Positions 1 through 53,953 of a stretch of DNA of 53,953 bases are shown piece after piece. Below the pieces are notes generated by a model. The model saw nothing but the letters and a program-made list of their open reading frames with translations. It was not told where the DNA came from and made no database searches. The translations under genes were made by a program, and so were the position numbers. The DNA lies in the NCBI GenBank assembly GCA_905181785.1, contig CAJIZC010000028.1:1-53953 (forward strand), in the 5' to 3' direction. How positions within the stretch are numbered: position 1 is the stretch's first letter; every line of letters begins with the position of its first letter. The DNA comes from an uncultured Candidatus Poseidoniales archaeon (lineage in GTDB: Archaea; Thermoplasmatota; Poseidoniia; Poseidoniales; Poseidoniaceae).

Positions 1-2688
1 CGCTGCAAGGTCGATGCCTGCGTCAATAAACGCCTGATCGGTTGGCGCAAAGAGCGTGAACGGTCCGTCGCCTTGGAGCGTTTCCAACAGTTCGGCCTGG
101 ATCACGGCTGCAACCAACGAATCGTGAACACCTGTGCATTGAGCGGTGCGTGGAATGTTGTTGGGTGTGGACGTTGGACTCAGCACCTTGTCGATGACGT
201 GAATCACACCGTTGCTGGTGTTCACGTCCGCAAGCGTAACGTTGGCTCCGTTGACCATGACGCCGTCACCGACGGTGAAGGACAACGGTTGCCCGTTAAC
301 CGCCGCAGCGCTCATGCAGTCGGTGACCGCAGAGGCGGGAACTGCGCTGCCCACAACGTGGTAGAGCAGAATGTCGGTGAGAGCGGTTTTGCCGTCAGGC
401 GTGTCGAGCGCTGCAAGGTCGATGCCTGCATCAATGAACGCTTGATCGGTTGGGGCAAAGAGCGTGAACGGTCCGTCGCCCTGGAGCGTTTCCAACAGTT
501 CCGCTTGGATGACGGCTGCAACCAGCGAGTCGTGAACGCCTGTGCATTGAGCGGTGCGTGGAATGTTGTTTGGCGTTGCGGTTGGGGTGAGCACCTTATC
601 GATGACGTGAATCAAGCCGTTGCTTGTTGCAACGTCGGTGGCGGTCACGGTGGCTCCGTTGACCATGACGCTGTCGCCTACGGTGAAGGAAAGCGGGTTT
701 CCGTTCACGGTTGTGGCGGACATGCAGTCGGTAACGGCGGAAGCTGGAACCTCGCCTGCAACAACGTGGTAGAGCAAGATGTCGCTGAGGGCTGCTTTGC
801 CTTCTGGCGTGTCCAAATCTGCCAGAACAATGCCCGCATCAAGGAACGCTTGGTCCGTTGGGGCGAAGACCGTGAACGGGCCGTCGCCTTGGAGGGTTGG
901 CAACAATTCCGCTTGAATCACGCTGGCCACGAGGGAGTTGTGAACGCCAGTGCATTGAGCGGTGCGTGGAATATCGTCTGGTGTTGCGGTCGGGGTGAGC
1001 ACCTTGTCGATGACGTGGATGACACCGTTGCTGGTGTTGACATCTGCGAGCGTGACGGTGGCGTCGTTCACCATCACGCTATCGCCAACAGTGAAGGCGA
1101 TGGGGTTGCCGTTAACGGTGGTTGCCTTCAGGCACTCGGTTACAGCGGAGGAAGGAACGGCTCCAGCAACGACGTGGTAGAGCAAGATGTCAGAGAGGGC
1201 TGCTTTTCCTTCAGGGGTATCGAGGGCTCCCAAGTCAATGCCTGCGTCCAAGAAGGCCTGATCGGTTGGAGCAAAGAGCGTGAAAGGCCCAGCGCCTTGG
1301 AGCGTTTCGAGCAGTTCTGCTTGAACCACTGCAGAGACAAGCGAATCGTGAATTCCAGTGCATTGTGCCGTGCGGGGAATGTTGTTTGGGGTCTCAGAGG
1401 GCGTGAGCACCTGATCGATGACGTGGATTACACCGTTGCTTGTGGCAACATCGGGAATCGTGACCGTGGCGCCATTGACCATTACGGTTGTCCCAACCGT
1501 GAAGGCGAGGGGTTGGCCGTTCACGGCGGTTGCAGTCATGCATTCCGTCACAGCGGAGGAAGGAACCTCGCCCGCCACAACGTGATAGAGCAAGATGTCG
1601 GAAAGAGCAGCCTTGCCCTCAGGTGTATCAAGGGAGGCCAAGTCAATGCCCGCATCCGTGAACGCTTGATCTGTTGGAGCAAAGAGGGTGAAAGGCCCAG
1701 TGCCTTGGAGCGTCTCGAGGAGTTCTGCTTGGACCACAGCAGACACGAGCGAGTTGTGAACTCCGGTGCATTGAGCCGTACGTGGGATGTCCTTCGGCGT
1801 ATCGGATGGTGTAAGGACCTTGTCGATCACGTGAATCAAACCGTTGGTGGTCACAACGTTGGTTGCAACAACGGTTGCGTCGTTCACCATGACGGAATCT
1901 CCGACGGTGAAGGAAAGAGGTTGACCGTTGGCAGCGTCCGCCATCATGCAGTCGGTCACGTCCCCCGCTGCGACTTCAGCGGAAACGACGTGGTAAAGCA
2001 AAATGTCACTCAGTGTGACTTTGCCCTCAGGTGTGTCGAGTGCCCCGAGGTCAATGCCTGCATCTGCGAACGCTTGGTCGGTTGGAGCAAAGACGGTGAA
2101 CGGGCCTGCACCTTGGAGGGTGGCGAGCAAATCGGCTTGAACAACCGCAGCCACAAGAGAATTGTGAATGCCGGTCGTTTGAGCGGTTGCTGGAATGTCG
2201 AGCGTTGGTGGGGTAAGAACGGTGTCAATGACGTGGATGATTCCGTTGGATGCCAGCACATCAGCGGTGGTAACAGTAGCGCCTCCGACTGTGACGACGC
2301 CGTTGCTGACTCCGAAATTGACGTTCTGACCGTTGACCATCTGAGCGACCATTCCGTCGCTGACTGCGCTTGCCGGAACCTCGCCTGCAACCACGTGGTA
2401 GAGGAGAATATCAGTGAGGGTAGCGTTCTCTTCCGGAGTGTCAAAGTCAGCCAAATTGATACCGGCATCGGTGAAAGCTTGGTCGGTTGGGGCAAAGACA
2501 GTGAAGGGCCCTGTTCCTTGGAGGGTGGCCACGAGGTTGGCATGAGTGAGAGCGGCAACCAACGAGTCGTGAACACCGGTTGCTGCAGCGTTTGCTGGTA
2601 TGTCTTGAGTTTCGTCTGCGCTTGCTGTCAGGGGGAGGGCAGAGGCAAGCAATAGGGCAAGCGTTAGGTATACGGCAGCGGTTCTCAT
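1..2688 (-). CDS. Secreted multi-domain fasciclin (FAS1) repeat protein, 3' end outside the window
   Basis: The minus strand stays open from here to the left edge, so the C-terminus is missing. An N-terminal signal peptide (MRTAAVYLTLALLL..., cleavage probably after ASA) is followed by seven tandem FAS1 domains of about 136 residues (spacing 405-411 bp), the seventh cut by the edge. Each carries the family signatures GPFTVFAPTDQAF, DILLYHVV and NG(V/L)IHVID. FAS1 domains mediate adhesion and binding in secreted or cell-surface proteins; here an extracellular role is inferred. Repeats 3-6 each carry two cysteines (TAQC and xCM), repeat 1 none and repeat 2 only the second. An in-frame ATG at 2697 exists, but a TATA box centred about 28 nt before 2688 favours 2688 with a leaderless transcript. 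FAS1 identification is secure; the start and the missing C-terminal anchor are not. Confidence 0.9.
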   Translation of the reverse strand, partial: MRTAAVYLTLALLLASALPLTASADETQDIPANAAATGVHDSLVAALTHANLVATLQGTGPFTVFAPTDQAFTDAGINLADFDTPEENATLTDILLYHVVAGEVPASAVSDGMVAQMVNGQNVNFGVSNGVVTVGGATVTTADVLASNGIIHVIDTVLTPPTLDIPATAQTTGIHNSLVAAVVQADLLATLQGAGPFTVFAPTDQAFADAGIDLGALDTPEGKVTLSDILLYHVVSAEVAAGDVTDCMMADAANGQPLSFTVGDSVMVNDATVVATNVVTTNGLIHVIDKVLTPSDTPKDIPRTAQCTGVHNSLVSAVVQAELLETLQGTGPFTLFAPTDQAFTDAGIDLASLDTPEGKAALSDILLYHVVAGEVPSSAVTECMTATAVNGQPLAFTVGTTVMVNGATVTIPDVATSNGVIHVIDQVLTPSETPNNIPRTAQCTGIHDSLVSAVVQAELLETLQGAGPFTLFAPTDQAFLDAGIDLGALDTPEGKAALSDILLYHVVAGAVPSSAVTECLKATTVNGNPIAFTVGDSVMVNDATVTLADVNTSNGVIHVIDKVLTPTATPDDIPRTAQCTGVHNSLVASVIQAELLPTLQGDGPFTVFAPTDQAFLDAGIVLADLDTPEGKAALSDILLYHVVAGEVPASAVTDCMSATTVNGNPLSFTVGDSVMVNGATVTATDVATSNGLIHVIDKVLTPTATPNNIPRTAQCTGVHDSLVAAVIQAELLETLQGDGPFTLFAPTDQAFIDAGIDLAALDTPDGKTALTDILLYHVVGSAVPASAVTDCMSAAAVNGQPLSFTVGDGVMVNGANVTLADVNTSNGVIHVIDKVLSPTSTPNNIPRTAQCTGVHDSLVAAVIQAELLETLQGDGPFTLFAPTDQAFIDAGIDLAA

Positions 2689-2884: not shown

Positions 2885-4885
2885 ATGCACCTCATGGTTC
2901 TAAGCGCATTGCCGGGTGTCGGCGAACGATTGGCAAAGAAAATCACCGCTCACTTTGGTGATGAAGAAGAGGCCCTTGCCTCGTTGCGTTGCGGTGATAT
3001 TGCACGCGTCGCAGAGATCGATGGTGTCTCTCCAAAGCGGGCCCTTTCGCTTGCTCGGCTTGTTGCTGGGGATTCGGGCTCGTTTCTTGCGACGAAGGAA
3101 GCGGAACGGTTGCACAAAAATATTCTCACCCACATCCAATCATACGCATCGGCTTCAGCCACCCGCCAACGGATGCAACTTTTGATGCCGGTTCAGGACC
3201 CAACCGCTCGGAGGGAAAAATCACAAGCTGCAATCAACTTCGCCAAGGCTTGCCCAGACCGCATGAACCAACTCACATCCATTCTCAAAACCCTTGGACA
3301 GACCCGCCACAGCACCGAGCGCTACGAACGGGTTGTTGTGAGCAAGGCACCGATGGAGCACCTCAAAAAATGGTGCAGGGTTCTGCAGCCAGGCGACGGT
3401 GAGACTTGGAAAGACTATACTGTGTTCAAGCTGGTTACATGGATCGGTGCCGGCGCACCCGCAAATCCTCCAAAGGGTTGGGTCGTTCTAGGTACGAACC
3501 CTTCGCCAGAAATGGTTGTGCCCGAACGGACGATTGACTGGTTCGCCAACAATCAACGGCCTCTCTCAGCGCTTGTGGCTCTGGTGGAAGACGCCCAGAA
3601 CGGCGATGAGGGTCAATCATTCCTTTCGGACATTCACGGTGCGGTGGCCGGCCTTGAACGTTTACCTGAATGGTTGAACAGCATTGAGGATCAAGGCGAT
3701 TTAGAAACCATTGCCGATGTCAAAGACCGGTTGTGGAAGATTGCAAAAGGGCTTGAAGCCACCGTCAATGACGAGGTGGCGGAAGCAATGAACAACGCCA
3801 AAATGAACCTCAGCGGGAGTGAACTCTTGGAGGCGCTGTCCGATGGAGCGGCGTTCCAGAGAAAACTCAAGCAGGCAACAAGCGAGGTCATCACCGACGC
3901 CATGGAAGCGGCAAAACAGCGGCTGGCCGTGGAACTCGAAGGCACAGGTGTTCGGGTCCCATACTCTATTTTCGCAAAGGATTGGCCTGCTAAGGTGGAT
4001 CGCAAAGTCATCGATGAATTGGACAACGCCTTGGGCGTCAACCTCGCATCAGGAGAAACTGAACGCATGTTGACGCTGGCCAAGAACCTCGGCCCGTTGC
4101 AGGCGAGGTGCGAGCAAGCCGTTCGAACGCTGATCGAACTCGACCAGTGGGTGGCTGTAGCACGCTGGGCCGTCGAGCACGGTTGCACCATGCCGGTGCT
4201 TGCCGAACACGGAATACACATCGAGCAGGGTCGACACCTGCTCTTGGGCGTGGAACCGGATGCTGTCACTTACGGGCTTGGTCAATGCGCTCTCAAAAAT
4301 GACCAACAATCTCTAGCGTTGTTGACTGGTGCGAACTCCGGTGGCAAAACAACCTTGCTTGAATTGCTTGCACACACCTGCATCTTAGCCCATATGGGCT
4401 TGCCAGTACCCGCTCAACACGCAGTGGTGGGTCAGGTCGAAGCCCTGCACATATTGGCAAAAGCAGGAGGCACTCAAAGCGCTGGTGCGCTTGAACAAAC
4501 CCTCGTTGAATTGGCAACAGTTGTCAGCGACCCAACACCAAAATTGATCTTGGCTGATGAACTTGAAGCGATTACAGAACCCGGCGCTGGTGCGCGTATT
4601 ATCGCAGGCATGTTGTTGGCTGCAGAATCCCAAAAAGACACCACAATGATGCTGGTCACCCACCTTGCACCTTCCATCATTGAGGCCACCGGGCGCGACG
4701 ATTTGCGGGTTGATGGAATCGAAGCCACTGGCCTCGATGCAGACTTAGAACTCATGGTTGACCGCACCCCGAAGCGGAACCATTTGGCCAGATCGACACC
4801 TGAACTCATCGTGAAGCGCTTGGTTGAACGAAGCGACGGTCATGCCCAGAACTTGTTTCGAGACATCTTAACGATGTTTCAGTGA
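2885..4885 (+). CDS. MutS-family (MutS2-like) DNA-binding ATPase with N-terminal helix-hairpin-helix
   Basis: 666 residues. The C-terminal part is a MutS-type ABC ATPase: Walker A GANSGGKTT near residues 482-490, a Q-loop/signature region (GGTQSAGALEQTL) around 530, and Walker B LILADELEA near 555 with the catalytic DE pair. The N-terminus (LSALPGVGERLAKKI) is a helix-hairpin-helix typical of non-specific DNA binding. The middle is long and helical, as in the lever/clamp of MutS2-type proteins. No mismatch-recognition domain of the bacterial MutS1 type (FxE motif) is visible, nor a Smr nuclease tail. A role in recombination or DNA-structure processing is therefore more likely than classical mismatch repair. 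An ATG at 2894 is an alternative start. It converges on the next gene with no base between the stops. Confidence 0.8.
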   Translation: MHLMVLSALPGVGERLAKKITAHFGDEEEALASLRCGDIARVAEIDGVSPKRALSLARLVAGDSGSFLATKEAERLHKNILTHIQSYASASATRQRMQLLMPVQDPTARREKSQAAINFAKACPDRMNQLTSILKTLGQTRHSTERYERVVVSKAPMEHLKKWCRVLQPGDGETWKDYTVFKLVTWIGAGAPANPPKGWVVLGTNPSPEMVVPERTIDWFANNQRPLSALVALVEDAQNGDEGQSFLSDIHGAVAGLERLPEWLNSIEDQGDLETIADVKDRLWKIAKGLEATVNDEVAEAMNNAKMNLSGSELLEALSDGAAFQRKLKQATSEVITDAMEAAKQRLAVELEGTGVRVPYSIFAKDWPAKVDRKVIDELDNALGVNLASGETERMLTLAKNLGPLQARCEQAVRTLIELDQWVAVARWAVEHGCTMPVLAEHGIHIEQGRHLLLGVEPDAVTYGLGQCALKNDQQSLALLTGANSGGKTTLLELLAHTCILAHMGLPVPAQHAVVGQVEALHILAKAGGTQSAGALEQTLVELATVVSDPTPKLILADELEAITEPGAGARIIAGMLLAAESQKDTTMMLVTHLAPSIIEATGRDDLRVDGIEATGLDADLELMVDRTPKRNHLARSTPELIVKRLVERSDGHAQNLFRDILTMFQ

Positions 4886-42214: not shown

Positions 42215-44543
42215 GCTCTCGACTGCGTTGCTCTTGCTCGCGGTCACCGTCACGCCCGGTTACGCTCTGTGTCGAATCCTTGATGCGAGTGCTGACGGAT
42301 GGCGTAAAGCAATGCTCAGTCCTGCATTGGGGCTTTTGCTGGCTTTTGGATTGGCGGGCAGTCTGCTTTACACAAAGGTGTGGTCATGGAGCCTGATGTC
42401 TGCGTGCTTGCTGTTGATCAATACGATTGGTTTCGCCCACATACGGCAGAGGGTTGAAGATAAAAACAACAGGACGCCTTGGCAGGCCTTAGAAGCAGCA
42501 ATGCACGGGGAAGTATCCTCACCGCAAGAGGCTGCACTCAGTGAAGAAGTCACGGCACAGCGATGGTTTCAATCGAATCGAAAACCATGGGTGATGACGC
42601 TCGGCGGCCTTGTTGCGCTCAGTTGCCTGACCTTGCCCTTTTTGCAAACCTTACCCTTTGGCGTGGATTGGATTGGGTTCTCGATGCTCAGCGGCCAAAT
42701 TCACATCGCAGGTTCAATGGCACTTCCAGGCACAAGCGAAGGCTTCTGGACCTACCCACCCGCATTCCCTGCCCTTGCCGCTTGGTTGCAAGGCTGCCTT
42801 GGAATCACATCGGGCCAAGCCGTGTTTCAACTGGGGCACTACAGCCTGTTTGTCATTGTCCTCGGCGTTGGTGGAGCCATGGATCGCCACGGAGCCGGCG
42901 CCCAAGGCATGTTGAGCATGGCACTTGGAGCGGGTTTGTTTGCAAAAACGTTTGATTCAGGCTACCCCACCGTCGCAAGCCAACTCGGGCTGGTGGTTGG
43001 TTTGTTGGTGCTGTTGCGGCCAAGCGCGACTCGCGGCAAGCATCACACGAGAGGCTTCATGCTGGCTTTCCTGTGTGTTCTTCTGATTCATCCGACGGGA
43101 GCGATCTACCTTGGCATGCTGATGGCTGCCCACCTTGTGATTGGGTTGCGTCTGGATGAAAAGCACGCGGCTGGCATCCAAAAACTCCTGATGACGAGTG
43201 CCATTTTGCTCACCGCTGCTGCTGCGATTGCCCTTTTGATGCTCGCTCCAAGGATGCTTGATGCTGCGGTGTTTGCAGAATATGGATGGCAGGGGGGGCG
43301 GCCACTGTTGTCCTACAACGGCGTGTTGTTGCTTGGAGGCTTATTCGCTTCATGGCAACTGCGAGGCACCGTTGAAGGCATGTTGTTGAGCGCTTGGGTT
43401 GCAAGCCTGTGGATGTTGAGCGGCATTCACCTGATTGAAGGTCTTGAGCAGATTCCAATTTTGTCCTTGCTTTCCTATGTGTTGTATTCAATGGGTCTGC
43501 ACGCGTTCCATATCCCCCTTGCCGCCCTGTTTGCGCTGCTGTGGAGCGACAGCACGAACCTGACCGCCGTCGACTCAAAGCGCGGCCTTATGGGTATAGG
43601 TTGGGACCCACACCTTCACCGACATATTGTCACGGGTTTGATGTCGGGGCTTGTTCTTGCGTTGATGCTCGGCAATCTCTTGCTGATTCAGGTGAGTCAA
43701 CATGACGAACTTCGCCCACAAACTCAAGGCGATGTGGCGCTGCTCGAAGAGATCGCAGCTTTGCCTTCGGGAAGCATCGTATTTTCTGAAAACGCTCACT
43801 GGGGTTATGTTCTGGATGCCCCAGCCCACATCAAAATGACCAGCATACCGACCCTTGGATTGGTGCAATTGGAGGATTCAATTCAGGCGCAAGCGACGTC
43901 GGCCGTGTTTGGTGACAATTCTGAAGCCATTCACGCCCTCAACATCACACATGCCGTTTCATCCCCGATTGGGACCGCTGGGTGGTACCTTGGCGCATCA
44001 GCACACTGGTCGCTGATGAGCGAGCACGCTGGAAGCGCCTTGTGGGCCTTTGATTCCAGCGGCACCAGTGAACAGTTCCAATTCACATCAGCCAACGAGG
44101 CAAGTTGCAGAGAAGGGTGTAGCATGCGCGAAGATCCTTGGCGAAACCATCGTTTCCGAGACCCCTTCAACATCGGCGAAATGAGGCCGTTCGTAGAACA
44201 AGGGCAAACCTCGGGCGTCAATTTTGCTGCACCAGCGCACCTCGGTTCGAACATGACGGTGTGCGTTGTGTTTGAGGCGGTTGGTAACTTGAATGAAATT
44301 AAATTCACATTGAACGGCCAAACGGCCACGAGTGGGGTGCATGCACAACGCAACGCTGGATGGCATTCAACATGCATGGAGCCGTCAAATTTGAGCAACG
44401 GCGAATTGGAATTAAGCATCGAATGGGGCGAGGAGGCTTCACTTGCCGACCGCTGGGTCAACCCGATTGGGTTCTCTGGCCGCGGCGATGCGTTGTTCGA
44501 CCGAACTGGAGTCCGGCTCCATTGGCTCGAATTTAGGGCCTGA
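42213..44543 (+). CDS. Large polytopic membrane protein, GT-C-glycosyltransferase-like
   Basis: 776 residues. About 12 helices fill residues 1 to ~500 and a soluble, probably extracytoplasmic domain of ~270 residues follows, with two possible disulfides (CREGC; VCVVF ... TCMEP). The loop FWTYPPAFPALAAWLQG resembles the YP-x-x-[FW]-x-A segment of GT-C-type membrane glycosyltransferases and DUF6541 proteins, but no clear catalytic acidic motif is identified. The next gene is a GT2 transferase of the polyprenyl-phosphate-sugar type, which would supply the donor for a GT-C enzyme. Function is therefore a context inference. Confidence 0.6.
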   Translation: MLSTALLLLAVTVTPGYALCRILDASADGWRKAMLSPALGLLLAFGLAGSLLYTKVWSWSLMSACLLLINTIGFAHIRQRVEDKNNRTPWQALEAAMHGEVSSPQEAALSEEVTAQRWFQSNRKPWVMTLGGLVALSCLTLPFLQTLPFGVDWIGFSMLSGQIHIAGSMALPGTSEGFWTYPPAFPALAAWLQGCLGITSGQAVFQLGHYSLFVIVLGVGGAMDRHGAGAQGMLSMALGAGLFAKTFDSGYPTVASQLGLVVGLLVLLRPSATRGKHHTRGFMLAFLCVLLIHPTGAIYLGMLMAAHLVIGLRLDEKHAAGIQKLLMTSAILLTAAAAIALLMLAPRMLDAAVFAEYGWQGGRPLLSYNGVLLLGGLFASWQLRGTVEGMLLSAWVASLWMLSGIHLIEGLEQIPILSLLSYVLYSMGLHAFHIPLAALFALLWSDSTNLTAVDSKRGLMGIGWDPHLHRHIVTGLMSGLVLALMLGNLLLIQVSQHDELRPQTQGDVALLEEIAALPSGSIVFSENAHWGYVLDAPAHIKMTSIPTLGLVQLEDSIQAQATSAVFGDNSEAIHALNITHAVSSPIGTAGWYLGASAHWSLMSEHAGSALWAFDSSGTSEQFQFTSANEASCREGCSMREDPWRNHRFRDPFNIGEMRPFVEQGQTSGVNFAAPAHLGSNMTVCVVFEAVGNLNEIKFTLNGQTATSGVHAQRNAGWHSTCMEPSNLSNGELELSIEWGEEASLADRWVNPIGFSGRGDALFDRTGVRLHWLEFRA

Positions 44544-44553
44544 GGGCCGTATC

Positions 44554-45327
44554 ATGCGAAGCGATGAAAGGTATATTCACATTCCAAACACCATGAAGCG
44601 AGTGCTGGTGCTGCTTCCAACCCTCGACGAGGCGGAAGGAATTGCCGAAGTGGTCCCAAGGATTCCAAAGGGAGTTCTTCAACAGGCCGGATGGGAAGTT
44701 CGCATCCTTGTCGTCGACGGTGGCAGCGATGACGGGACCATTGAAATTGCTGAGTCGCTCGGTTGTTCCACGCTTCGCCAATACGGCAAAGGGAAGGGCG
44801 CAGCAATGCGTCAAGGGTTTTCGATTTTTCTTCAAGGGGAATGCGACGCTCTTGTGATGTTGGACGCTGATGGAACGTATCACCCCGAAGAAATTCCAAG
44901 ATTCCTCCGGGGGCTGGAGAAATCCGATGTGGTGGTCGGTGATCGGCTAAAAGGGAAAATGGATCCAGACGCAATGACTCGAGTCAATTACTTTGGCAAT
45001 CATTTGTTGACATGGTGTGCTGTGGCCCTCTATGGGGTCGCAATGAATGATTTGTGCTCGGGGTATTGGGCGTTTAAGCGTCCATCAATCGCCATGTTGA
45101 ACCTCAATTCGATGCGCTTTGAAATCGAGGCAGAGATGTACACTTCATGCGCAATGGAGGATTTGAAAATGACCCACATCCCAATTCGGTATTCCAGCAG
45201 ATTGGGTGAAGCGAAGCTTGGATCTGTCAAAGATGGTTGGAATATTCTTCGCAAACTCCTGGTTCGTCGTATTTTCAAAACACCTCCGCAAACCACGCCG
45301 GGTGAAGGGAATTTGAACTTGGATTAA
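44554..45327 (+). CDS. Family 2 glycosyltransferase (dolichol-phosphate-sugar synthase-like)
   Basis: 257 residues, GT-A fold. LPTLDEAEGI at the N-terminal strand, VVDGGSDDGT for nucleotide binding, and MLDADGTY (DxD metal site) followed by HPEEIPRFL are the family signatures. VVGDRLKGKM and DLCSGYWAFKR match dolichol/polyprenyl-phosphate mannose or glucose synthases. No C-terminal membrane helices are present, so it is probably peripheral. GAGG 8-9 nt upstream supports ATG 44554; ATG 44593 is the alternative. It lies 10 bp after the membrane GT-C-like gene and probably works with it in protein N-glycosylation or a surface glycan. Confidence 0.88.
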   Translation: MRSDERYIHIPNTMKRVLVLLPTLDEAEGIAEVVPRIPKGVLQQAGWEVRILVVDGGSDDGTIEIAESLGCSTLRQYGKGKGAAMRQGFSIFLQGECDALVMLDADGTYHPEEIPRFLRGLEKSDVVVGDRLKGKMDPDAMTRVNYFGNHLLTWCAVALYGVAMNDLCSGYWAFKRPSIAMLNLNSMRFEIEAEMYTSCAMEDLKMTHIPIRYSSRLGEAKLGSVKDGWNILRKLLVRRIFKTPPQTTPGEGNLNLD

Positions 45328-47728: not shown

Positions 47729-47947
47729 ATGGGATTCTGTATCAACTGCGGACAACAGCACCAAGATGGCATTCGCTTCTGCCGATTTTGTGGCAATCAG
47801 CAACCTGGTGACCAACTCTTGATGCGCCTTCGGCAAGAAGCCGAGCAAATACACTACATGCGTTTGCAAATGCAAGCCGCTCAACAAGCAGCTCAGCAAC
47901 AATACGCTGCAAACAATCAGTATCAACAGCAACCACCGCGCTGGTGA
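47729..47947 (+). CDS. 72-residue zinc-ribbon protein
   Basis: The N-terminus is a compact zinc ribbon with two CxxC pairs (FCINCGQQ ... FCRFCGNQ) and only 11 residues between them, followed by a charged helix and a Gln/Ala/Tyr-rich tail. Such mini ribbons commonly serve as nucleic-acid or protein docking modules. A GGAGG site precedes it. Its stop codon is part of the GGTGA site used by the downstream methyltransferase, so the two are tightly coupled. Confidence 0.8.
   Translation: MGFCINCGQQHQDGIRFCRFCGNQQPGDQLLMRLRQEAEQIHYMRLQMQAAQQAAQQQYAANNQYQQQPPRW
47943..47947 (+). promoter_or_regulatory. Shine-Dalgarno site of the METTL5-like gene
   Basis: GGTGA, 5 nt before the ATG at 47953 and containing the stop codon of the preceding gene. 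It decides for 47953 over a GTG at 47944. Confidence 0.6.
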
Positions 47948-47952
47948 GCCGC

Positions 47953-48615
47953 ATGAGGCCTAAGCATCTGGCCATTGAGTTGTCGAAACTTCAGCCTCAC
48001 CCGTGCGGCTCTGTCGAACTTGAGCAATACGCCACAGAGGGCGACCTCGCTGCCTACTGGATGCTCGGAGTCGATCAACTTGATGATGTTGAAGGCAAGC
48101 ACGTGGTCGATTTAGCCGCAGGAAATGGTATTCTTGGTCTGGCCACATTGATGATTGGTGCTGGTCATGTAACGCTTGTGGAGGGCGACAAAGCAGCGGC
48201 TGAAGCCGCTCTGGCCAACATCGAACGGGTGACGCAACGACGTGACGGGACCGCAAGCGTTGTTCACGCCATGGTGGGTCATGAGGAAATCGAAATCGAG
48301 CGGCCCGTTGATTTGGTCGTGATGAATCCCCCTTGGGGCGTTCAAACGGCCCGTGCAGATCGGCCGTTGCTTGAACTTGCGTTTTCACTTGGCGCACCTG
48401 CAGTTCATATCCTTCACAGTGCAAAAGCACGCCACGTGCAAGCCATCGCACGGGACAACGGTTACGAGGGTGAAATCATGCTGGAAACTGAATTCCGTCT
48501 TCCTCCAACCTACGCTCACCACACCAAGGGCAAAGCCGCAACAGAAGTTCGATGCTGGCGTTTCCACCTGCCGGGGGATGCGAAATTAATCGAGGACGAA
48601 ATCGAAGAGGCGTGA
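47953..48615 (+). CDS. METTL5-like rRNA adenosine N6-methyltransferase
   Basis: 220 residues. SAM-binding VVDLAAGNGILGLATLMIGA (51-70), acidic VEGD after the second strand, and the amino-methyltransferase motif NPPW (125-128). The N-terminus (KHLAIELSKLQ ... ELEQYATEG) and the ending (LPPTYAHHTKGKAATEVRCWRF) follow the METTL5/archaeal orthologue pattern, which modifies an adenosine of small-subunit rRNA in eukaryotes. Human METTL5 needs the zinc-finger partner TRMT112; here a zinc-ribbon protein is encoded directly upstream, though it is not a recognisable TRMT112. Start chosen by the GGTGA site. Confidence 0.85.
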   Translation: MRPKHLAIELSKLQPHPCGSVELEQYATEGDLAAYWMLGVDQLDDVEGKHVVDLAAGNGILGLATLMIGAGHVTLVEGDKAAAEAALANIERVTQRRDGTASVVHAMVGHEEIEIERPVDLVVMNPPWGVQTARADRPLLELAFSLGAPAVHILHSAKARHVQAIARDNGYEGEIMLETEFRLPPTYAHHTKGKAATEVRCWRFHLPGDAKLIEDEIEEA

Positions 48616-48692: not shown

Positions 48693-50126
48693 ATGTTTGC
48701 AAAAGGAATGAATCACATGACGCCGAGCCTCGTCACCCCAGGAATGAATGTATCAAGCACCGCAGATTGCGAGGCTGGAGAAGGAACAATCGAAGTGGAT
48801 GGTCGCATTGTGGCCACCGCAGTTGGCGCCTTTTCCATCATCGAAGGGGTTGGAACCGTTATGGCTGCAAAGGCCATCGTCACTCCAGAAGTGGGCGACA
48901 CCGTGCTGTGTGAAATCGTCAAGCTCAACGAGAAGAACGGAGAAGCGCAAGTGATCTGCGTCGAAGGCAAGCCAGGAAGCGTGCTTCCTGAGCACCTCTA
49001 CGGACAATTCCACGTCACCAACATCGTCGATCGCTACATGCACCAAACCTCGGATGCTGTTCGTCGACGGGACGTGTGCCGTGCTGAAGTCAAAGAAACG
49101 AGCCCCGTGCTCCGCATCTCGTTCCGTGACCGAGATGACTGTGGCGTGCTCCACGCAATCTGCCCCTCCTGCGGTGACACACTCAACGCCGACCAAGACG
49201 GCGACTGGAACGTTCGTTGCCCAACATGCGATTACCAATCTTACCGAGCCCTTGCCGACAACTACGGCGCTGGCTGGGGTGAAGTTGAGCAAGGTGCAAG
49301 CGCCCTCAACAATTCTGGAAAGCGATGGGGCGGTGCTGCTGAAGCCATGTTTGGCAAAGGCCCTGCTGGCCGTGCGACCTTCATTGCCGCCGACGTCCGA
49401 GAAGATGGACGAGAGCGCACCTATTTCCGATTCGAAGGCGAAAGCGGTGGCCAAGGTCGCCGACCACGAAACGCTCCGGGATGCCGACTGTTTGTTGGTG
49501 GCTTGCCACGTGAAGTTGGAACTGAAGAACTCCGCGCCCTGTTTGCTGAACACGGTGACATGACCGATTGCATTGTCCTCACCGACGACAACGGCGTAAA
49601 CCGGGGCTTCGGATTCGTCACCTACAGCGAAAAGGCACACGCTGATGCTGCAATTGCAAAGTTGGACAAGCACAAGGTCAACGGCCGACGCATCGGCGTT
49701 CGCGATGCAGACAGCGATGACAAGAAGGGCAAGCGCGAGAAGCGAAAGGATCCTGAAGGTCTCAAACTCTACGTCGGTAACCTCCCATTCAAGGCAACTG
49801 AGGAACAACTCAAGGCGCTGTTTGAAGGCGTGGCAACCATTACTGAACTTGTGATGGCAACCGACAACGCTGGAAAGCCCAAAGGATTCGCATTCGCATT
49901 CGTGAAGGAAATAGATCAGGGTGAAGCAATCGTCGAGAAACTCAACGGCACTGAACTGCTTGGTCGGAAGATCAAGGTCGATGTTTCACAAGGTGGAAAG
50001 AAAGGCGGAAAGCCCGGAAAGCCTGCTGAATCTGGTGGCAAAACCAACCGTGAACTTCAAGCCATGCGGGAAGAGGAAGAAGACGGCAAGAAGCGCCGTC
50101 AACGCCGACGCCCCAAGAAGGATTGA
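48693..50126 (+). CDS. Csl4-type exosome subunit fused to two RRM RNA-binding domains
   Basis: 477 residues. Residues ~10-185 follow archaeal Csl4: N-terminal VTPGMNV ... GEGTIEVDGRIVATAVG, an S1/OB region beginning VGDTVLCEIVKLNEKNGEAQV, and a zinc ribbon with Cys157/160/176/179 (CPSC ... CPTC). After a linker of ~75 residues come RRM1 (~265-338; RNP2 LFVGGL, RNP1 RGFGFVTY) and RRM2 (~358-431; RNP2 LYVGNL, RNP1 KGFAFAFV), then a Lys/Arg/Glu-rich tail. Csl4 caps the RNA exosome and recruits partners and poly(A); RRMs bind single-stranded RNA and are uncommon in archaea. The whole is one uninterrupted frame. ATG 48717 is an alternative start. It follows the rRNA methyltransferase by 77 bp. Confidence 0.85.
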   Translation: MFAKGMNHMTPSLVTPGMNVSSTADCEAGEGTIEVDGRIVATAVGAFSIIEGVGTVMAAKAIVTPEVGDTVLCEIVKLNEKNGEAQVICVEGKPGSVLPEHLYGQFHVTNIVDRYMHQTSDAVRRRDVCRAEVKETSPVLRISFRDRDDCGVLHAICPSCGDTLNADQDGDWNVRCPTCDYQSYRALADNYGAGWGEVEQGASALNNSGKRWGGAAEAMFGKGPAGRATFIAADVREDGRERTYFRFEGESGGQGRRPRNAPGCRLFVGGLPREVGTEELRALFAEHGDMTDCIVLTDDNGVNRGFGFVTYSEKAHADAAIAKLDKHKVNGRRIGVRDADSDDKKGKREKRKDPEGLKLYVGNLPFKATEEQLKALFEGVATITELVMATDNAGKPKGFAFAFVKEIDQGEAIVEKLNGTELLGRKIKVDVSQGGKKGGKPGKPAESGGKTNRELQAMREEEEDGKKRRQRRRPKKD

Positions 50127-50152
50127 AGACCGCCGCACGCGGGTTGGTCATT

Positions 50153-51931
50153 ATGGTCGAGGCGCATTCTGAAAAGTGGCTCGTCATCGATGGCTACGAA
50201 GATGAACCCGCTGCCTTCGGCGTCCCGCCTTACGTTGGTTTCCACATCCGATATTTATGTGGCGTATTAGAACGAGCCAACATCGAATATGATTACATCA
50301 CCATTGATGACTGGCGGATGTTCATCCGTCAGCAAGGCGAAGAGGCCGTTCGTAAACGATTGGCCGTGGTATCTGGCCTTGCTTGCATCGCAGGGGCAGT
50401 GGTGCCAGGCCGCTACTTGCGAGGCACACCCATCTCACTCAAAGAAACTCGAGAATTAATTCGAACCCTTCCGAACAACACGCCCGCTTTGTTTGGAGGT
50501 TGGGCGATTCGCGGTTGGCGCCAGCAAGGTTGGTCGCCGCTTCAAGCCAACCTTTTTCTCGCACTGCAGGACACAGACGCAACGCTCGACAAGTACCTCA
50601 AAACTGGTGCTTGGTCGCATGAGCGGCGCACGGCTGAACAATGGACTGAATGGGCGCAAGCAGGAGCCTCGAGCAAAGCTGTCAGCGACCATCCTGATCT
50701 TGGAACAGAGCAAAAGCGAGGCCCGCTCACCTATGAGGTGGAAGTCTACCAAGGCTGCGTCCGTTACAAACGAGGGTGCAAGTTCTGTATTGAGCCAAAG
50801 AAGGGTGTTCCAATTTGGCGAACCCCAGAAGACATCATCGAAGAAGTTCGCCTTGCGCATGACGCCGGCGTTCAACACGTGCGCTTGGGCGGCATGACCG
50901 ACACCTACACCTACATGGCAGACGGGGTCAAGGAACTCGAATATCCTGTACCAAACCCAGAGCCGATTGCTCAATTGCTCCATGGGCTGCGCGATGATGA
51001 TCGCCTTGGAATCCTCCATACAGACAACGGTAACCCTTCGATTATCGCTGAGAACTTGGAAGAATCAGAAGCCATCACGAAAACGCTGGTCGAAACGCTT
51101 TCCGATGGTGCAGTCCTTTCCTTTGGTCTTGAATCAGCAGATCCATCCGTTCATGATGCCAATTGGTTGAACTGCGACCCTGCACAACTGAAGGCGGCGA
51201 TCCGTTTGGTTAACAAATACGGCAAAGAACGCGGCTCACGGGGGTTGCCCAAACTTTTGCCGGGCCTCAACTTCATCGCTGGACTCAATGGAGAAACGGA
51301 AGCGAGTTACCAAATGAACCTCGATTTATTGCATGAAATTCGCAGAGAAGGCCTCCTTTTGCGCCGAATCAACATTCGTCAAGTCGAAGGTGAAGGCTTC
51401 CAAGACATCCCACAGAAGCAATTTAACATGTTCAAAACCAATGTGCGCGACACCATTGATGGGCCACTCTTGCAGGAACTATTCCCTATGGGTGGCGTTC
51501 TATCCGATGTGCATTGGGAAACGCATGACGGACGGACGCGCCTTCCCGCCCACCTTGATGAAGCGCACACTGCGGAGTCATCAAGAGGTAAAGCAGGGAT
51601 TACCTTCGGGCGCCAAATTGGCGCATACCCGATTCTTATTGGCGTCGAATACCACATTCCTCTCGAAACGCAGTCCGATGTGGTCATTACAGGGCATGGC
51701 GCACGTTCGATTACTGGTGTTGAGATCAACCTCGATCATGACACAATGACCCAAAAACACCTCGAAGCAATACCTGGAATCGGCGAAAAGACCGCTTGGA
51801 AGCTGATCAGCCAACGTGCCAAACGAAAACGCAAGACCCGTGATGAAGCAGCATACACAGATCCCGAAGCATGGTTCAAGGCGACGTCCATCGATTGGGA
51901 CGAGGATTACTCAATTTATTTCAAGTCATGA
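50153..51931 (+). CDS. Radical SAM protein with C-terminal helix-hairpin-helix (COG1031-like)
   Basis: 592 residues. The N-terminal ~200 residues form a B12-binding-like alpha/beta region (VIDGYEDEPAAFGVPPYVGFH). The radical SAM cluster is in YQGCVRYKRGCKFC, spaced C-x6-C-x2-C instead of the textbook C-x3-C-x2-C, followed by VRLGGMTDTYTY and a TIM-barrel pattern (LSFGLESAD). Near the C-terminus EAIPGIGEKTAWKLIS is a helix-hairpin-helix, so nucleic acid is the likely substrate or docking site. The reaction is unknown. The ATG is preferred over a TTG overlapping the Csl4 stop. Confidence 0.85.
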   Translation: MVEAHSEKWLVIDGYEDEPAAFGVPPYVGFHIRYLCGVLERANIEYDYITIDDWRMFIRQQGEEAVRKRLAVVSGLACIAGAVVPGRYLRGTPISLKETRELIRTLPNNTPALFGGWAIRGWRQQGWSPLQANLFLALQDTDATLDKYLKTGAWSHERRTAEQWTEWAQAGASSKAVSDHPDLGTEQKRGPLTYEVEVYQGCVRYKRGCKFCIEPKKGVPIWRTPEDIIEEVRLAHDAGVQHVRLGGMTDTYTYMADGVKELEYPVPNPEPIAQLLHGLRDDDRLGILHTDNGNPSIIAENLEESEAITKTLVETLSDGAVLSFGLESADPSVHDANWLNCDPAQLKAAIRLVNKYGKERGSRGLPKLLPGLNFIAGLNGETEASYQMNLDLLHEIRREGLLLRRINIRQVEGEGFQDIPQKQFNMFKTNVRDTIDGPLLQELFPMGGVLSDVHWETHDGRTRLPAHLDEAHTAESSRGKAGITFGRQIGAYPILIGVEYHIPLETQSDVVITGHGARSITGVEINLDHDTMTQKHLEAIPGIGEKTAWKLISQRAKRKRKTRDEAAYTDPEAWFKATSIDWDEDYSIYFKS

Positions 51932-52061: not shown

Positions 52062-53953
52062 ATGCGCACGAAGCAAACCATCTCAGTGGCCCTTTCCCTG
52101 ATGATCTTACTGCTAGGACAAGCAATGACTTCGCACCTGAATCAAATCCCCACGTATTTTGAGGATTCATCATTCGAATCCGCTGAACCTTTGTTTTCTT
52201 CAAATAATTCAACTGGCAACAATTCTTCGAACGATTCGCATTGCATGACCGTTGATAATTTTACAATCAATTCAACCTACTATGTAGGGATTGATTTGGT
52301 CAACATCTGCAGCAATGCGATACAATATCCCGGGGTGAATACCAGTGTGAACCATTCCGGCGTTTCTGGCTTCCCCAACCAAACAAATTGGTTCTACATG
52401 ATTGGAGCCAATGGGACATACAACCTCACTTGGCAATTATCATTCAATCAATCGGTCGTCAATGGAACGCCGATTCAACTTGATTTTGAAGCACATGTAC
52501 TCAATTGTGGTCCAAACAATTCATGGTCGCACGCATGCCCGAACTCGACCTTCTCGCATCAGTTCATATTCGTCAGCAGCAACACAGGTGGCAACAACAC
52601 TGGCGGCAACAACACAGGTGGTAACAACACAGGTGGCAACAACACCGGTGGAAACAACACTGGTGGCAACAACACAGGTGGCAACAACACCGGCGGCAAC
52701 AACACTGGTGGCAACAACACCGGCGGTAACAACACAGGCGGTAACAACACAGGCGGTAACAACACTGGTGGCAACAACACTGGTGGCAACAACACTGGTG
52801 GCAACAACACAGGTGGCAACAACACTGGTGGTAACAACACCGGCGGCAACAACACAGGTGGTAACAACACTGGTGGCAACAACACCGGCGGAAACACAGG
52901 TTGTGGATACGATGCCAATTATTCAGAGGTTTATTCTAATTTATGGAATTCTCAATACTACGTAAATCAAACAATCAGTTCAACTCTGTGGGTTACTTGC
53001 GAGGTGCTAAACGCCTCAATGTTGCTAAATTATTGGATTTATGATTCAAGTAACTACACTCTTGCTGCAAATAACCAAACATGGGTCGGTTCGAATAATT
53101 TCAATACAACTTGGTCGACCCCTGGCCTATCCACTGGAAATTATACCTTACATGCAGATCTCTACGTGGACGGTACATGGGTTGACAGTTATGAAAGCTC
53201 ATTCGGAGTAATTAGCAACAACACTGGTGGTAACAACACAGGCGGTAACAACACAGGTGGCAACAACACCGGTGGTAACAACACCGGCGGCAACAACACG
53301 GGTGGTAACAACACAGGTGGCAACAACACTGGCGGCAACAACACCGGTGGTAACAACACAGGTGGTAACAACACTGGTGGCAACAACACAGGTGGTAACA
53401 ACACCGGCGGCAACAACACCGGCGGCAACAACACGGGTGGTAACAACACAGGTGGTAACAACACTGGTGGTAACAACACAGGTGGTAACAACACTGGCGG
53501 CAACAACACTGGCGGAAACAACACCGGTGGCAACAACACTGGCGGAAACAACACCGGTAGCACAGTGTCCATTGTTTGGATTGATACAAATGCGAGTTTC
53601 GGAGGAGGAGATGCTGAAATTTCGGTAGAGCATAGTGGAAACTGGACTGCCTATTGGGGAATAACCAATACCAACAGTGCACCAACGTTCCCATCATGGG
53701 ATTACAGCAACGGCTGGTGGAATGCTTCTGCGAGTGGAGGGCTTGGGACAACAACTGGAAGTGGCGATTCCACTTGGCTTTTCCAAAATATGGATCAATG
53801 GGGCGCTTTAGCCCCTCCTTCTTGTAATGTGTTGATGGTTGCCTTGTTCGATGGCAATCAAGGAGCTGCTTCAACCCAATCTACACCAGCAATGGATGAT
53901 CCTGTGGCGATCGATTATCAGACATTCGAGCTTGGCAATATCACCGCAGCTGA
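52062..53953 (+). CDS. Secreted Asn/Thr/Gly-repeat protein, 3' end outside the window
   Basis: The frame stays open to the right edge. A signal peptide (MRTKQTISVALSLMILLLGQ) and an Asn/Ser-rich region precede a beta-type domain (~residues 65-170, with Cys in SHCMTVDN, VNICSN, LNCGP and HACPN). Array 1 of NNTGG pentapeptides (~174-280) follows, then a second beta domain (~281-385, Cys in GCGYD and VTCEV), array 2 (~386-498), and a third domain starting VSIVWIDTNASFGGGD. Every NNTGG unit is an N-x-T glycosylation sequon; many more occur outside the arrays. No catalytic motif is seen. A weak TATA-like TCTTTAAG is centred ~27 nt before the ATG, suggesting a leaderless transcript. Function is probably a heavily glycosylated surface or matrix protein. 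Confidence 0.82.
   Translation, partial: MRTKQTISVALSLMILLLGQAMTSHLNQIPTYFEDSSFESAEPLFSSNNSTGNNSSNDSHCMTVDNFTINSTYYVGIDLVNICSNAIQYPGVNTSVNHSGVSGFPNQTNWFYMIGANGTYNLTWQLSFNQSVVNGTPIQLDFEAHVLNCGPNNSWSHACPNSTFSHQFIFVSSNTGGNNTGGNNTGGNNTGGNNTGGNNTGGNNTGGNNTGGNNTGGNNTGGNNTGGNNTGGNNTGGNNTGGNNTGGNNTGGNNTGGNNTGGNNTGGNNTGGNNTGGNTGCGYDANYSEVYSNLWNSQYYVNQTISSTLWVTCEVLNASMLLNYWIYDSSNYTLAANNQTWVGSNNFNTTWSTPGLSTGNYTLHADLYVDGTWVDSYESSFGVISNNTGGNNTGGNNTGGNNTGGNNTGGNNTGGNNTGGNNTGGNNTGGNNTGGNNTGGNNTGGNNTGGNNTGGNNTGGNNTGGNNTGGNNTGGNNTGGNNTGGNNTGGNNTGGNNTGSTVSIVWIDTNASFGGGDAEISVEHSGNWTAYWGITNTNSAPTFPSWDYSNGWWNASASGGLGTTTGSGDSTWLFQNMDQWGALAPPSCNVLMVALFDGNQGAASTQSTPAMDDPVAIDYQTFELGNITAA
52581..52901 (+). repeat. 15-bp tandem repeat array 1 (NNTGG-coding)
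   Basis: About 21 contiguous 15-bp units encoding Asn-Asn-Thr-Gly-Gly, 20 of them with the complete NNT sequon. The Asn codons are invariant AAC while Thr and Gly third positions vary (ACA/ACT/ACC, GGT/GGC/GGA), so the array has had time to diverge synonymously under selection for the protein sequence. Confidence 0.95.
53217..53557 (+). repeat. 15-bp tandem repeat array 2 (NNTGG-coding)
   Basis: 23 NNT units with the same pentapeptide and the same codon habits as the first array, separated from it by a unique domain of about 105 residues. A few ACG codons occur here that are absent from array 1. Confidence 0.95.

What the first reader, a model, noticed from the sequence alone, without database searches (positions are those of the whole stretch)
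48693..50126. Exosome subunit Csl4 fused to two RRM domains
Seen: one continuous frame with a Csl4-like N-domain, S1 region and four-cysteine zinc ribbon, then two full RRMs with canonical RNP2/RNP1 motifs and a basic tail. Known: archaeal Csl4 normally ends after the zinc ribbon, and RRMs are scarce in archaea. Inference: the fusion would give the exosome cap its own sequence-selective single-strand RNA-binding arm, a built-in substrate selector resembling the eukaryotic use of separate RRM cofactors.
Basis: partly seen in the sequence, partly recalled or inferred. Interest (0 to 1): 0.8.

Follow-up and report, generated by a model that had tools for sequence, protein, structure and literature searches.

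The report
Exosome cap protein with built-in RRMs
In an order of marine archaea, the Csl4 cap protein of the RNA-degrading exosome carries RNA-recognition (RRM) domains on its own tail, so the degradation machine probably has its own RNA-grabbing arm where eukaryotes use separate adaptor proteins.

Summary
The frame at 48693-50126 (likely start 48717) is a Csl4: NCBIfam Csl4 99 bits, cut-off 90; a two-family profile finds A. fulgidus Csl4 at E 3.5e-26 and human CSL4 at 1.8e-8. A linker, two full RRMs and a basic tail follow. It is not an artefact: Csl4 and RRM share one frame in 30 of 30 close loci and 20 of 20 other genus representatives of the order.

(2) These are the only RRMs found in the window's genome, which is 80% complete. 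(3) SBDS-Rrp4-Rrp41-Rrp42 and DnaG are present.

Best explanation: a cap subunit with an RNA-capturing arm. A laboratory fusion of an RNA-binding domain to the Sulfolobus Csl4 C-terminus worked that way (PMC4227792, passages). Docking, RNA binding and selectivity here are inferred. New variant of a known kind; nine searches of one open-access library showed no description of it.

The parts
48717..50126 (+). csl4-RRM fusion gene from its likely start (first-stage frame begins 48693)
48729..49268 (+). Csl4 core: N-domain, S1 region (by full-length Csl4 alignment; no Pfam S1 hit), zinc ribbon
   Evidence: NCBIfam NF034126, residues 13-192, 99 bits, cut-off 90; profile match to PDB 2ba1 E 3.5e-26
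49161..49229 (+). four-cysteine zinc ribbon, CxxC...CxxC
   Evidence: sequence; cysteine positions; the ribbon aligns with that of 2ba1
49269..49475 (+). linker; its first part (LN..GKRW...AE) is shared with most rows of families f1 and f2
   Evidence: dN/dS 0.023-0.093 in 5 of 7 comparisons
49488..49694 (+). RRM1
   Evidence: PF00076 69.2 bits; RRM element order in the model
49767..49976 (+). RRM2
   Evidence: PF00076 61.4 bits; RRM element order in the model
49992..50123 (+). Lys/Arg-rich C-terminal tail
   Evidence: sequence; dN/dS 0.085-0.380 in 5 of 7 comparisons
47944..48615 (+). upstream neighbour: small-domain methyltransferase
   Evidence: PF05175 36.6 bits; a relative lies directly upstream of Csl4 in 18 of 20 order loci and 6 of 6 f3 loci
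50123..51931 (+). downstream neighbour: radical SAM protein
   Evidence: PF04055 43.8 bits; a relative lies directly downstream in 17 of 20 order loci

Best explanation
The gene encodes the Csl4 subunit of the archaeal exosome cap with an RNA-capturing arm built onto its C-terminus. The Csl4 N-domain docks on the Rrp41/Rrp42 ring; the linker carries two RRMs and a basic tail away from the cap; the RRMs hold single-stranded RNA on their aromatic RNP surfaces and raise the local concentration of chosen RNA 3' ends at the pore, for phosphorolytic decay or for tailing in the reverse reaction. A cap can hold up to three Csl4, so several RRMs could ring one exosome. SHOWN: domain make-up, conservation, purifying selection, the only RRMs found in the window's genome, presence of the other exosome genes. 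INFERRED: docking, RNA binding, sequence preference, effect on decay or tailing.
For: Csl4 by model and profile. Core exosome genes and DnaG in the same genome. Fusion in one frame in 30 of 30 and 20 of 20 loci. RNP aromatics kept in 31 of 31 fused RRMs and low dN/dS. Fused RRMs form one side of a branch, 98/92. Only RRMs found in G000. The fused gene holds the Csl4 place next to the same methyltransferase as in f3. Precedent: an RNA-binding domain fused to the C-terminus of Sulfolobus Csl4 gave poly(A) binding and the fastest exosome of those compared (PMC4227792, passages).
Against: No experiment shows that this Csl4 joins the exosome or that the RRMs bind RNA. The Csl4 core is diverged: of ten order cores scored singly, four f2 cores fall under the curated cut-off (75.9-89.4 bits against 90), and Rrp4 and Rrp42 of the genome are under theirs too. 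RRM2 evolves faster than RRM1. The Csl4 part of the structure model is poor. DnaG seems complete, so the RRMs may be redundant.
Confidence: 0.72

Rival explanations
1. The RRMs are mainly docking modules for proteins, tying the exosome to DnaG, the ribosome or RNA polymerase, and bind RNA little.
For: RRMs can bind proteins: the RRM of human RBM7 binds ZCCHC8 through its helical back face (PMC5146272, passages). RRM2 of the own family evolves faster than RRM1 and does not form one clade in the tree.
Against: The RNA-stacking aromatics of RNP1 and RNP2 are kept in 31 of 31 fused RRMs, which a pure docking role would not need. RBM7's RRM still binds RNA while docked.
Confidence: 0.12
2. The fused protein also or mainly works off the exosome, as a general RNA-binding or RNA-chaperone protein such as the small free RRM proteins of other archaea and bacteria.
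For: The sister family f3 has a free RRM protein of 85-105 aa frames in 8 of 8 genomes, whose job might have moved into the fusion. The RRM part scores 99.5 bits, just under the cut-off of 100, with NCBIfam's Rbp_regulator model.
Against: It was the only Csl4 found in G000 and keeps the Csl4 place in the genome, so an exosome role should remain.
Confidence: 0.13
3. Assembly or frame artefact that joins two genes.
For: Metagenome-derived genomes are error-prone; f3 has the halves on different contigs.
Against: Same fusion in 30 of 30 and 20 of 20 loci, among them the 2.06 Mb chromosome record CM001443 (L032).
Confidence: 0.005

Closest known systems
Archaeal Csl4 (A. fulgidus AF_0206, PDB 2ba1; NCBIfam NF034126)
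   Same: N-domain, S1 region and zinc ribbon align nearly end to end
   Different: The known one ends after the ribbon; here about 290 residues follow, with two RRMs
Artificial Csl4-NT fusion of S. solfataricus (PMC4227792, passages)
   Same: An RNA-binding domain placed on the C-terminus of Csl4 in the exosome cap
   Different: Made in the laboratory with the N-terminal domain of DnaG; the natural one uses RRMs
RBM7 of the human NEXT complex (PMC5146272, passages)
   Same: RRM that directs RNA to the exosome; the role proposed here
   Different: Separate adaptor protein, joined through ZCCHC8 and MTR4; no common descent of the arrangement is claimed
Eukaryotic tandem RRM proteins (Sxl, hnRNP A1, PABP)
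   Same: Two RRMs with a short spacer; best sequence and fold matches
   Different: Not fused to Csl4; the nearest RRMs seen here are those of the same order. The relative position of the two RRMs is not settled by the model
Free small RRM proteins of Thermoplasmatota (L096-L123, part)
   Same: RRM_1 domain
   Different: Separate genes of 81-158 aa frames; they fall on the other side of a supported branch

Membership tests
Archaeal exosome Csl4 | Match to the curated Csl4 model over its length and cut-off | tested here: met
   99.0 bits for the whole protein, 102 for the core, cut-off 90. Of the 20 order cores 20 match at E 0.001; of 10 scored singly 6 are over the cut-off
Archaeal exosome Csl4 | N-terminal ECR1_N-type domain | tested here: inconclusive
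   25 bits, cut-off 27
Archaeal exosome Csl4 | S1 domain | tested here: inconclusive
   No Pfam S1 hit; the region aligns with that of 2ba1 in the profile match
Archaeal exosome Csl4 | Four-cysteine zinc ribbon | tested here: met
   C157, C160, C176, C179 (sequence); first and third invariant, second and fourth at least 90% in 20 rows of two families
Archaeal exosome Csl4 | Other exosome subunits in the genome | tested here: met
   Rrp41 328 bits over 318.7; DnaG 365 over 300; Rrp4 141 and Rrp42 237 are full-length matches but under their cut-offs (200, 280)
Archaeal exosome Csl4 | Assembly into the cap on the Rrp41/Rrp42 ring | not testable with these tools
   Needs reconstitution or pull-down
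RRM (PF00076) | Curated score, RNP1/RNP2 and RRM element order | tested here: met
RRM (PF00076) | Binding of single-stranded RNA | not testable with these tools
   Needs EMSA or CLIP

The most novel reading that the evidence does not exclude
The order hard-wired RRM-type RNA recognition into the exosome itself. The free RRM gene of the third family of the class is gone or rare, and nearly every RRM of the cell is an arm of the Csl4 cap. The arm is swappable between lineages (two RRMs, or treble-clef finger plus RRM, on one shared linker), giving lineage-specific substrate choice. This would be an independent, built-in counterpart of the eukaryotic exosome adaptors.
Probability: 0.45. Interest if true: 0.78.

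Novelty: new variant of a known kind. Interest (0 to 1): 0.62.

Why it matters
[quoted passage not shown] natural substrates are little known (PMC7667871, passages). Here an order of marine archaea has put RNA-binding domains on Csl4. This can be tested in vitro: make the protein with and without its arm, rebuild the exosome, and read which RNAs it takes. It also looks like a natural case in which a separate RNA-binding protein became part of the decay machine, parallel to eukaryotic adaptors such as RBM7.

Tried and rejected
Artefact: rejected by conservation. A second, classical Csl4 in the same genome: none found in G000. In the other order genomes the best Csl4 match is never stronger than E 3.4e-37, against 7e-39 to 4.7e-49 in the six f3 genomes with a clear Csl4. 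The margin is small, and second matches in the order were not listed, so a hidden classical copy there is unlikely but not excluded.

Sub-threshold matches are unspecific: in the control genomes the Csl4 model rings in 11 of 14, most of them bacteria, but over the cut-off in only 2; likewise Rrp41 12 and 2, DnaG 10 and 4. I therefore lean on cut-offs and full-length alignment.

Other Csl4 fusions: 10 Csl4 loci with long frames were fetched. Seven show only upstream open frame or tails of 2-38 residues; three (L174, L175, L176) have RG-rich tails of 72-116 residues.

Which RRM of the own family corresponds to the f2 RRM is not resolved: RRM1 with f2 p 0.512, RRM2 with f2 p 0.291, both f1 RRMs together p 0.108, RRM2 as one clade p 0.0955. 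The group table is wrong (my script put f10/f11 rows into f1 and f36 into f3); one search replaces it.

Structure of the Csl4 half: poor. Not repeated, because the job may hold only window and the search for related loci sequences and these are too alike. Of the 33 loci, 29 went into that alignment; L054, L059 and L062 (fragments) and L063 (a bacterial RRM match) were left out. The Csl4 profile used 20 of 21 rows; L134 was left out for ambiguous residues. Fusions outside the phylum were not surveyed beyond and the control genomes.

Papers: nine searches, of one open-access library; I saw listings, plus passages of PMC4227792, PMC7667871, PMC11641769 and PMC5146272. Subscription papers were not searched.

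Full report
WHAT IS THERE. The frame 48693-50126 + codes for 477 aa. Residues 13-192 match the curated Csl4 model at 99.0 bits (cut-off 90), nearly full length. A single-sequence search finds A. fulgidus Csl4 at E 2.1e-14. A profile of the Csl4 part from 20 rows of two families finds it at 3.5e-26 and human CSL4 at 1.8e-8; the Rrp4 matches cover only the N-terminal part. The core is diverged: ECR1_N is just under its cut-off and no Pfam S1 model is listed. After the ribbon come about 70 residues of linker, RRM1 (49488-49694), RRM2 (49767-49976) and a Lys/Arg-rich tail. The start is probably ATG 48717.

STRUCTURE. AlphaFold2 with 30 rows gave both RRMs the order strand-helix-strand-strand-helix-strand, with 10-residue block means of 64-87 pLDDT over 251-330 and 69-83 over 351-420; the rest, the Csl4 part included, is poor (mean 48.0). 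Foldseek on the model finds two-RRM chains: Sxl, hnRNP A1 UP1, SFPQ, HuD, HuR, PABP (best E 1.5e-13; TM by target about 0.25-0.50 and large rmsd, so the mutual position of the RRMs is not supported).

HOW WIDE. The window lies in a genome of 1.66 Mb, 79.75% complete. Close relatives in named records are titled Candidatus Poseidoniaceae, Poseidoniales, Euryarchaeota archaeon or uncultured euryarchaeote (32 of 33 loci; the 33rd is an Akkermansia RRM match). In 99 genomes (the own one and 98 relatives) 91 match: 52 of 59 of the own genus, 46 of them in one stretch from residue 8 or earlier to 476 or 477, and 39 of 40 of a second family of the order (f2). The misses are G012, G014, G017, G034, G052, G053, G054 and G066. 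In a phylum sample of 389 genomes, RRMs were found in 70 of 71 of the own family f1 (two or more each), 54 of 55 of f2 (one each; G070 two, on two contigs), 8 of 8 of f3 (same class; one each, in frames of 85-105 aa) and 21 of the other 255. The order's two misses, G376 and G066, also lack a clear Csl4. The names Thalassarchaeaceae for f2 and Marine Group III for f3 are my guess; the tools give codes only.

THREE STATES. (i) f1: Csl4-linker-RRM1-RRM2-tail in the window and in one representative of each of 9 further genera. (ii) f2: Csl4-linker-second zinc finger-RRM in one representative of each of 11 genera; the finger is PF23477 zf_Tbcl_2 in 3 of 3 proteins scanned (37-50 bits, cut-off 27), and the alignment shows its cysteines in all 11. 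(iii) f3: Csl4 ends 3 residues after the core in the 6 loci with a clear Csl4, of 8 genomes, and the RRM is on another contig in those six. The first part of the linker (LN..G.RW...AE) is shared by most rows of f1 and f2, less well kept in L135 and L136, and the 31 fused RRMs fall on one side of a branch against 21 free ones, 98/92 support. Both point to one fusion before the two families split, followed by remodelling of the middle module. Seventy-nine columns cannot settle which RRM is which. The methyltransferase upstream of the window's Csl4 has a relative directly upstream in 18 of 20 order loci (not L133, L137) and beside Csl4 in 6 of 6 f3 loci, so the fused gene sits in the old Csl4 place.

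THE ONLY RRMs. In the window's genome the two RRMs in Csl4 are the only ones found at E 0.01. Six order genomes were looked at row by row, among them the four with extra matches. G289 has a possible free RRM-like frame (C15, 111 aa, 38.8 bits) and a weak second (C16, 22.4 bits). G198 has a partial match in a separate 90-aa frame (C186). G318 shows pieces, two of three at contig ends; G070 has two Csl4-RRM copies on two contigs. So free RRMs are rare in the order, not shown to be absent. The RRM model rings in 2 of 14 control genomes, both bacteria; the four archaea among the controls named are not among them.

SELECTION. dN/dS against seven relatives: core 0.042-0.121 in 7; RRM1 0.007-0.083 in the 4 that could be estimated; RRM2 0.030-0.165 in 5; linker 0.023-0.093 in 5; tail 0.085-0.380 in 5. 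dS is near or past saturation in many, so the values are rough. The three RNA-stacking aromatic positions (RNP2 position 2, RNP1 positions 3 and 5; their role is recalled) are aromatic in 31 of 31 fused RRMs.

EXOSOME CONTEXT. In the same genome one run of genes codes for SBDS (216 bits, cut-off 127), Rrp4 (141, cut-off 200), Rrp41 (328, cut-off 319), Rrp42 (237, cut-off 280) and L37Ae (94, cut-off 87). Rrp4 and Rrp42 are full-length but under their cut-offs, so the whole complex is diverged here. DnaG is over its cut-off (365 against 300), and its model match begins at residue 21, MKYQIRADIKVNG. In Sulfolobus K6 and Y7 of the N-terminal domain bind RNA; that this KY is the same pair is my inference. 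If so, the RRMs add to DnaG and do not replace it.

HOW IT WORKS. In S. [quoted passage not shown] Putting DnaG's RNA-binding domain on the Csl4 C-terminus gave strong poly(A) binding and an exosome faster than those with Csl4 alone or with Csl4 and DnaG (PMC4227792, passages). The natural fusion places RRMs at that same end. I therefore propose an RNA-capturing arm on the cap. The step from RRM presence to sequence choice is not shown; selectivity could be broad.

CONTEXT IN THE PHYLUM. Of 48 unfused Csl4 loci examined, 45 have tails of 2-38 residues; three (families f15, f7, f7) have RG-rich tails of 72-116 residues. The loci were the 30 best-scoring, 8 and 10 with long frames, not a random draw. 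Csl4's C-terminus seems to have been used more than once for adding likely RNA-binding sequence.

NOVELTY. Nine searches of the open-access library showed no description of a Csl4-RRM fusion. Subscription papers and database annotations were not searched. Class: new variant of a known kind.

Noticed in passing
window 52576-52896 and 53217-53558 (+): Two 15-bp tandem arrays that read as about 21 and 23 copies of NNTGG in frame with flanking Asn/Thr-rich sequence: dense N-x-T sequons, a likely heavily glycosylated surface-protein stretch cut by the contig end. An AglJ-like N-glycosyltransferase match lies at 44443-45327 (TIGR04182 179 bits, cut-off 325).
   Followed up: partly
window 1-2118: About five copies of a 408-bp tandem repeat, 77% alike, inside an 860-aa frame without Pfam match at E 1e-4; it runs to the contig edge.
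   Followed up: no
L138-L148 (family f2): Csl4 carries a second, treble-clef zinc finger (PF23477) between linker and RRM where the own family has RRM1.
   Followed up: yes
L174, L175, L176: Unfused Csl4 of other Thermoplasmatota families (f15, f7) ends in an RG-rich tail of 72-116 residues, perhaps a parallel way to add RNA binding to the cap.
   Followed up: partly
G107, G117, G126, G133, G163, G166 (family f11): Six of the eight f11 genomes in the sample have no or only a weak Csl4 match, while G146 and G152 have a clear one; seven of the eight have an RRM match. Possible loss or divergence of Csl4, or incomplete genomes.
   Followed up: no
window 50123-51931: Radical SAM protein with weak C-terminal helix-hairpin-helix matches, directly downstream of Csl4-RRM in 17 of 20 order loci; its link to RNA decay, if any, is unknown.
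   Followed up: partly
window 2885-4885: Protein with a MutS domain V match (38 bits) and a weak N-terminal helix-hairpin-helix match; no other MutS domain listed.
   Followed up: no
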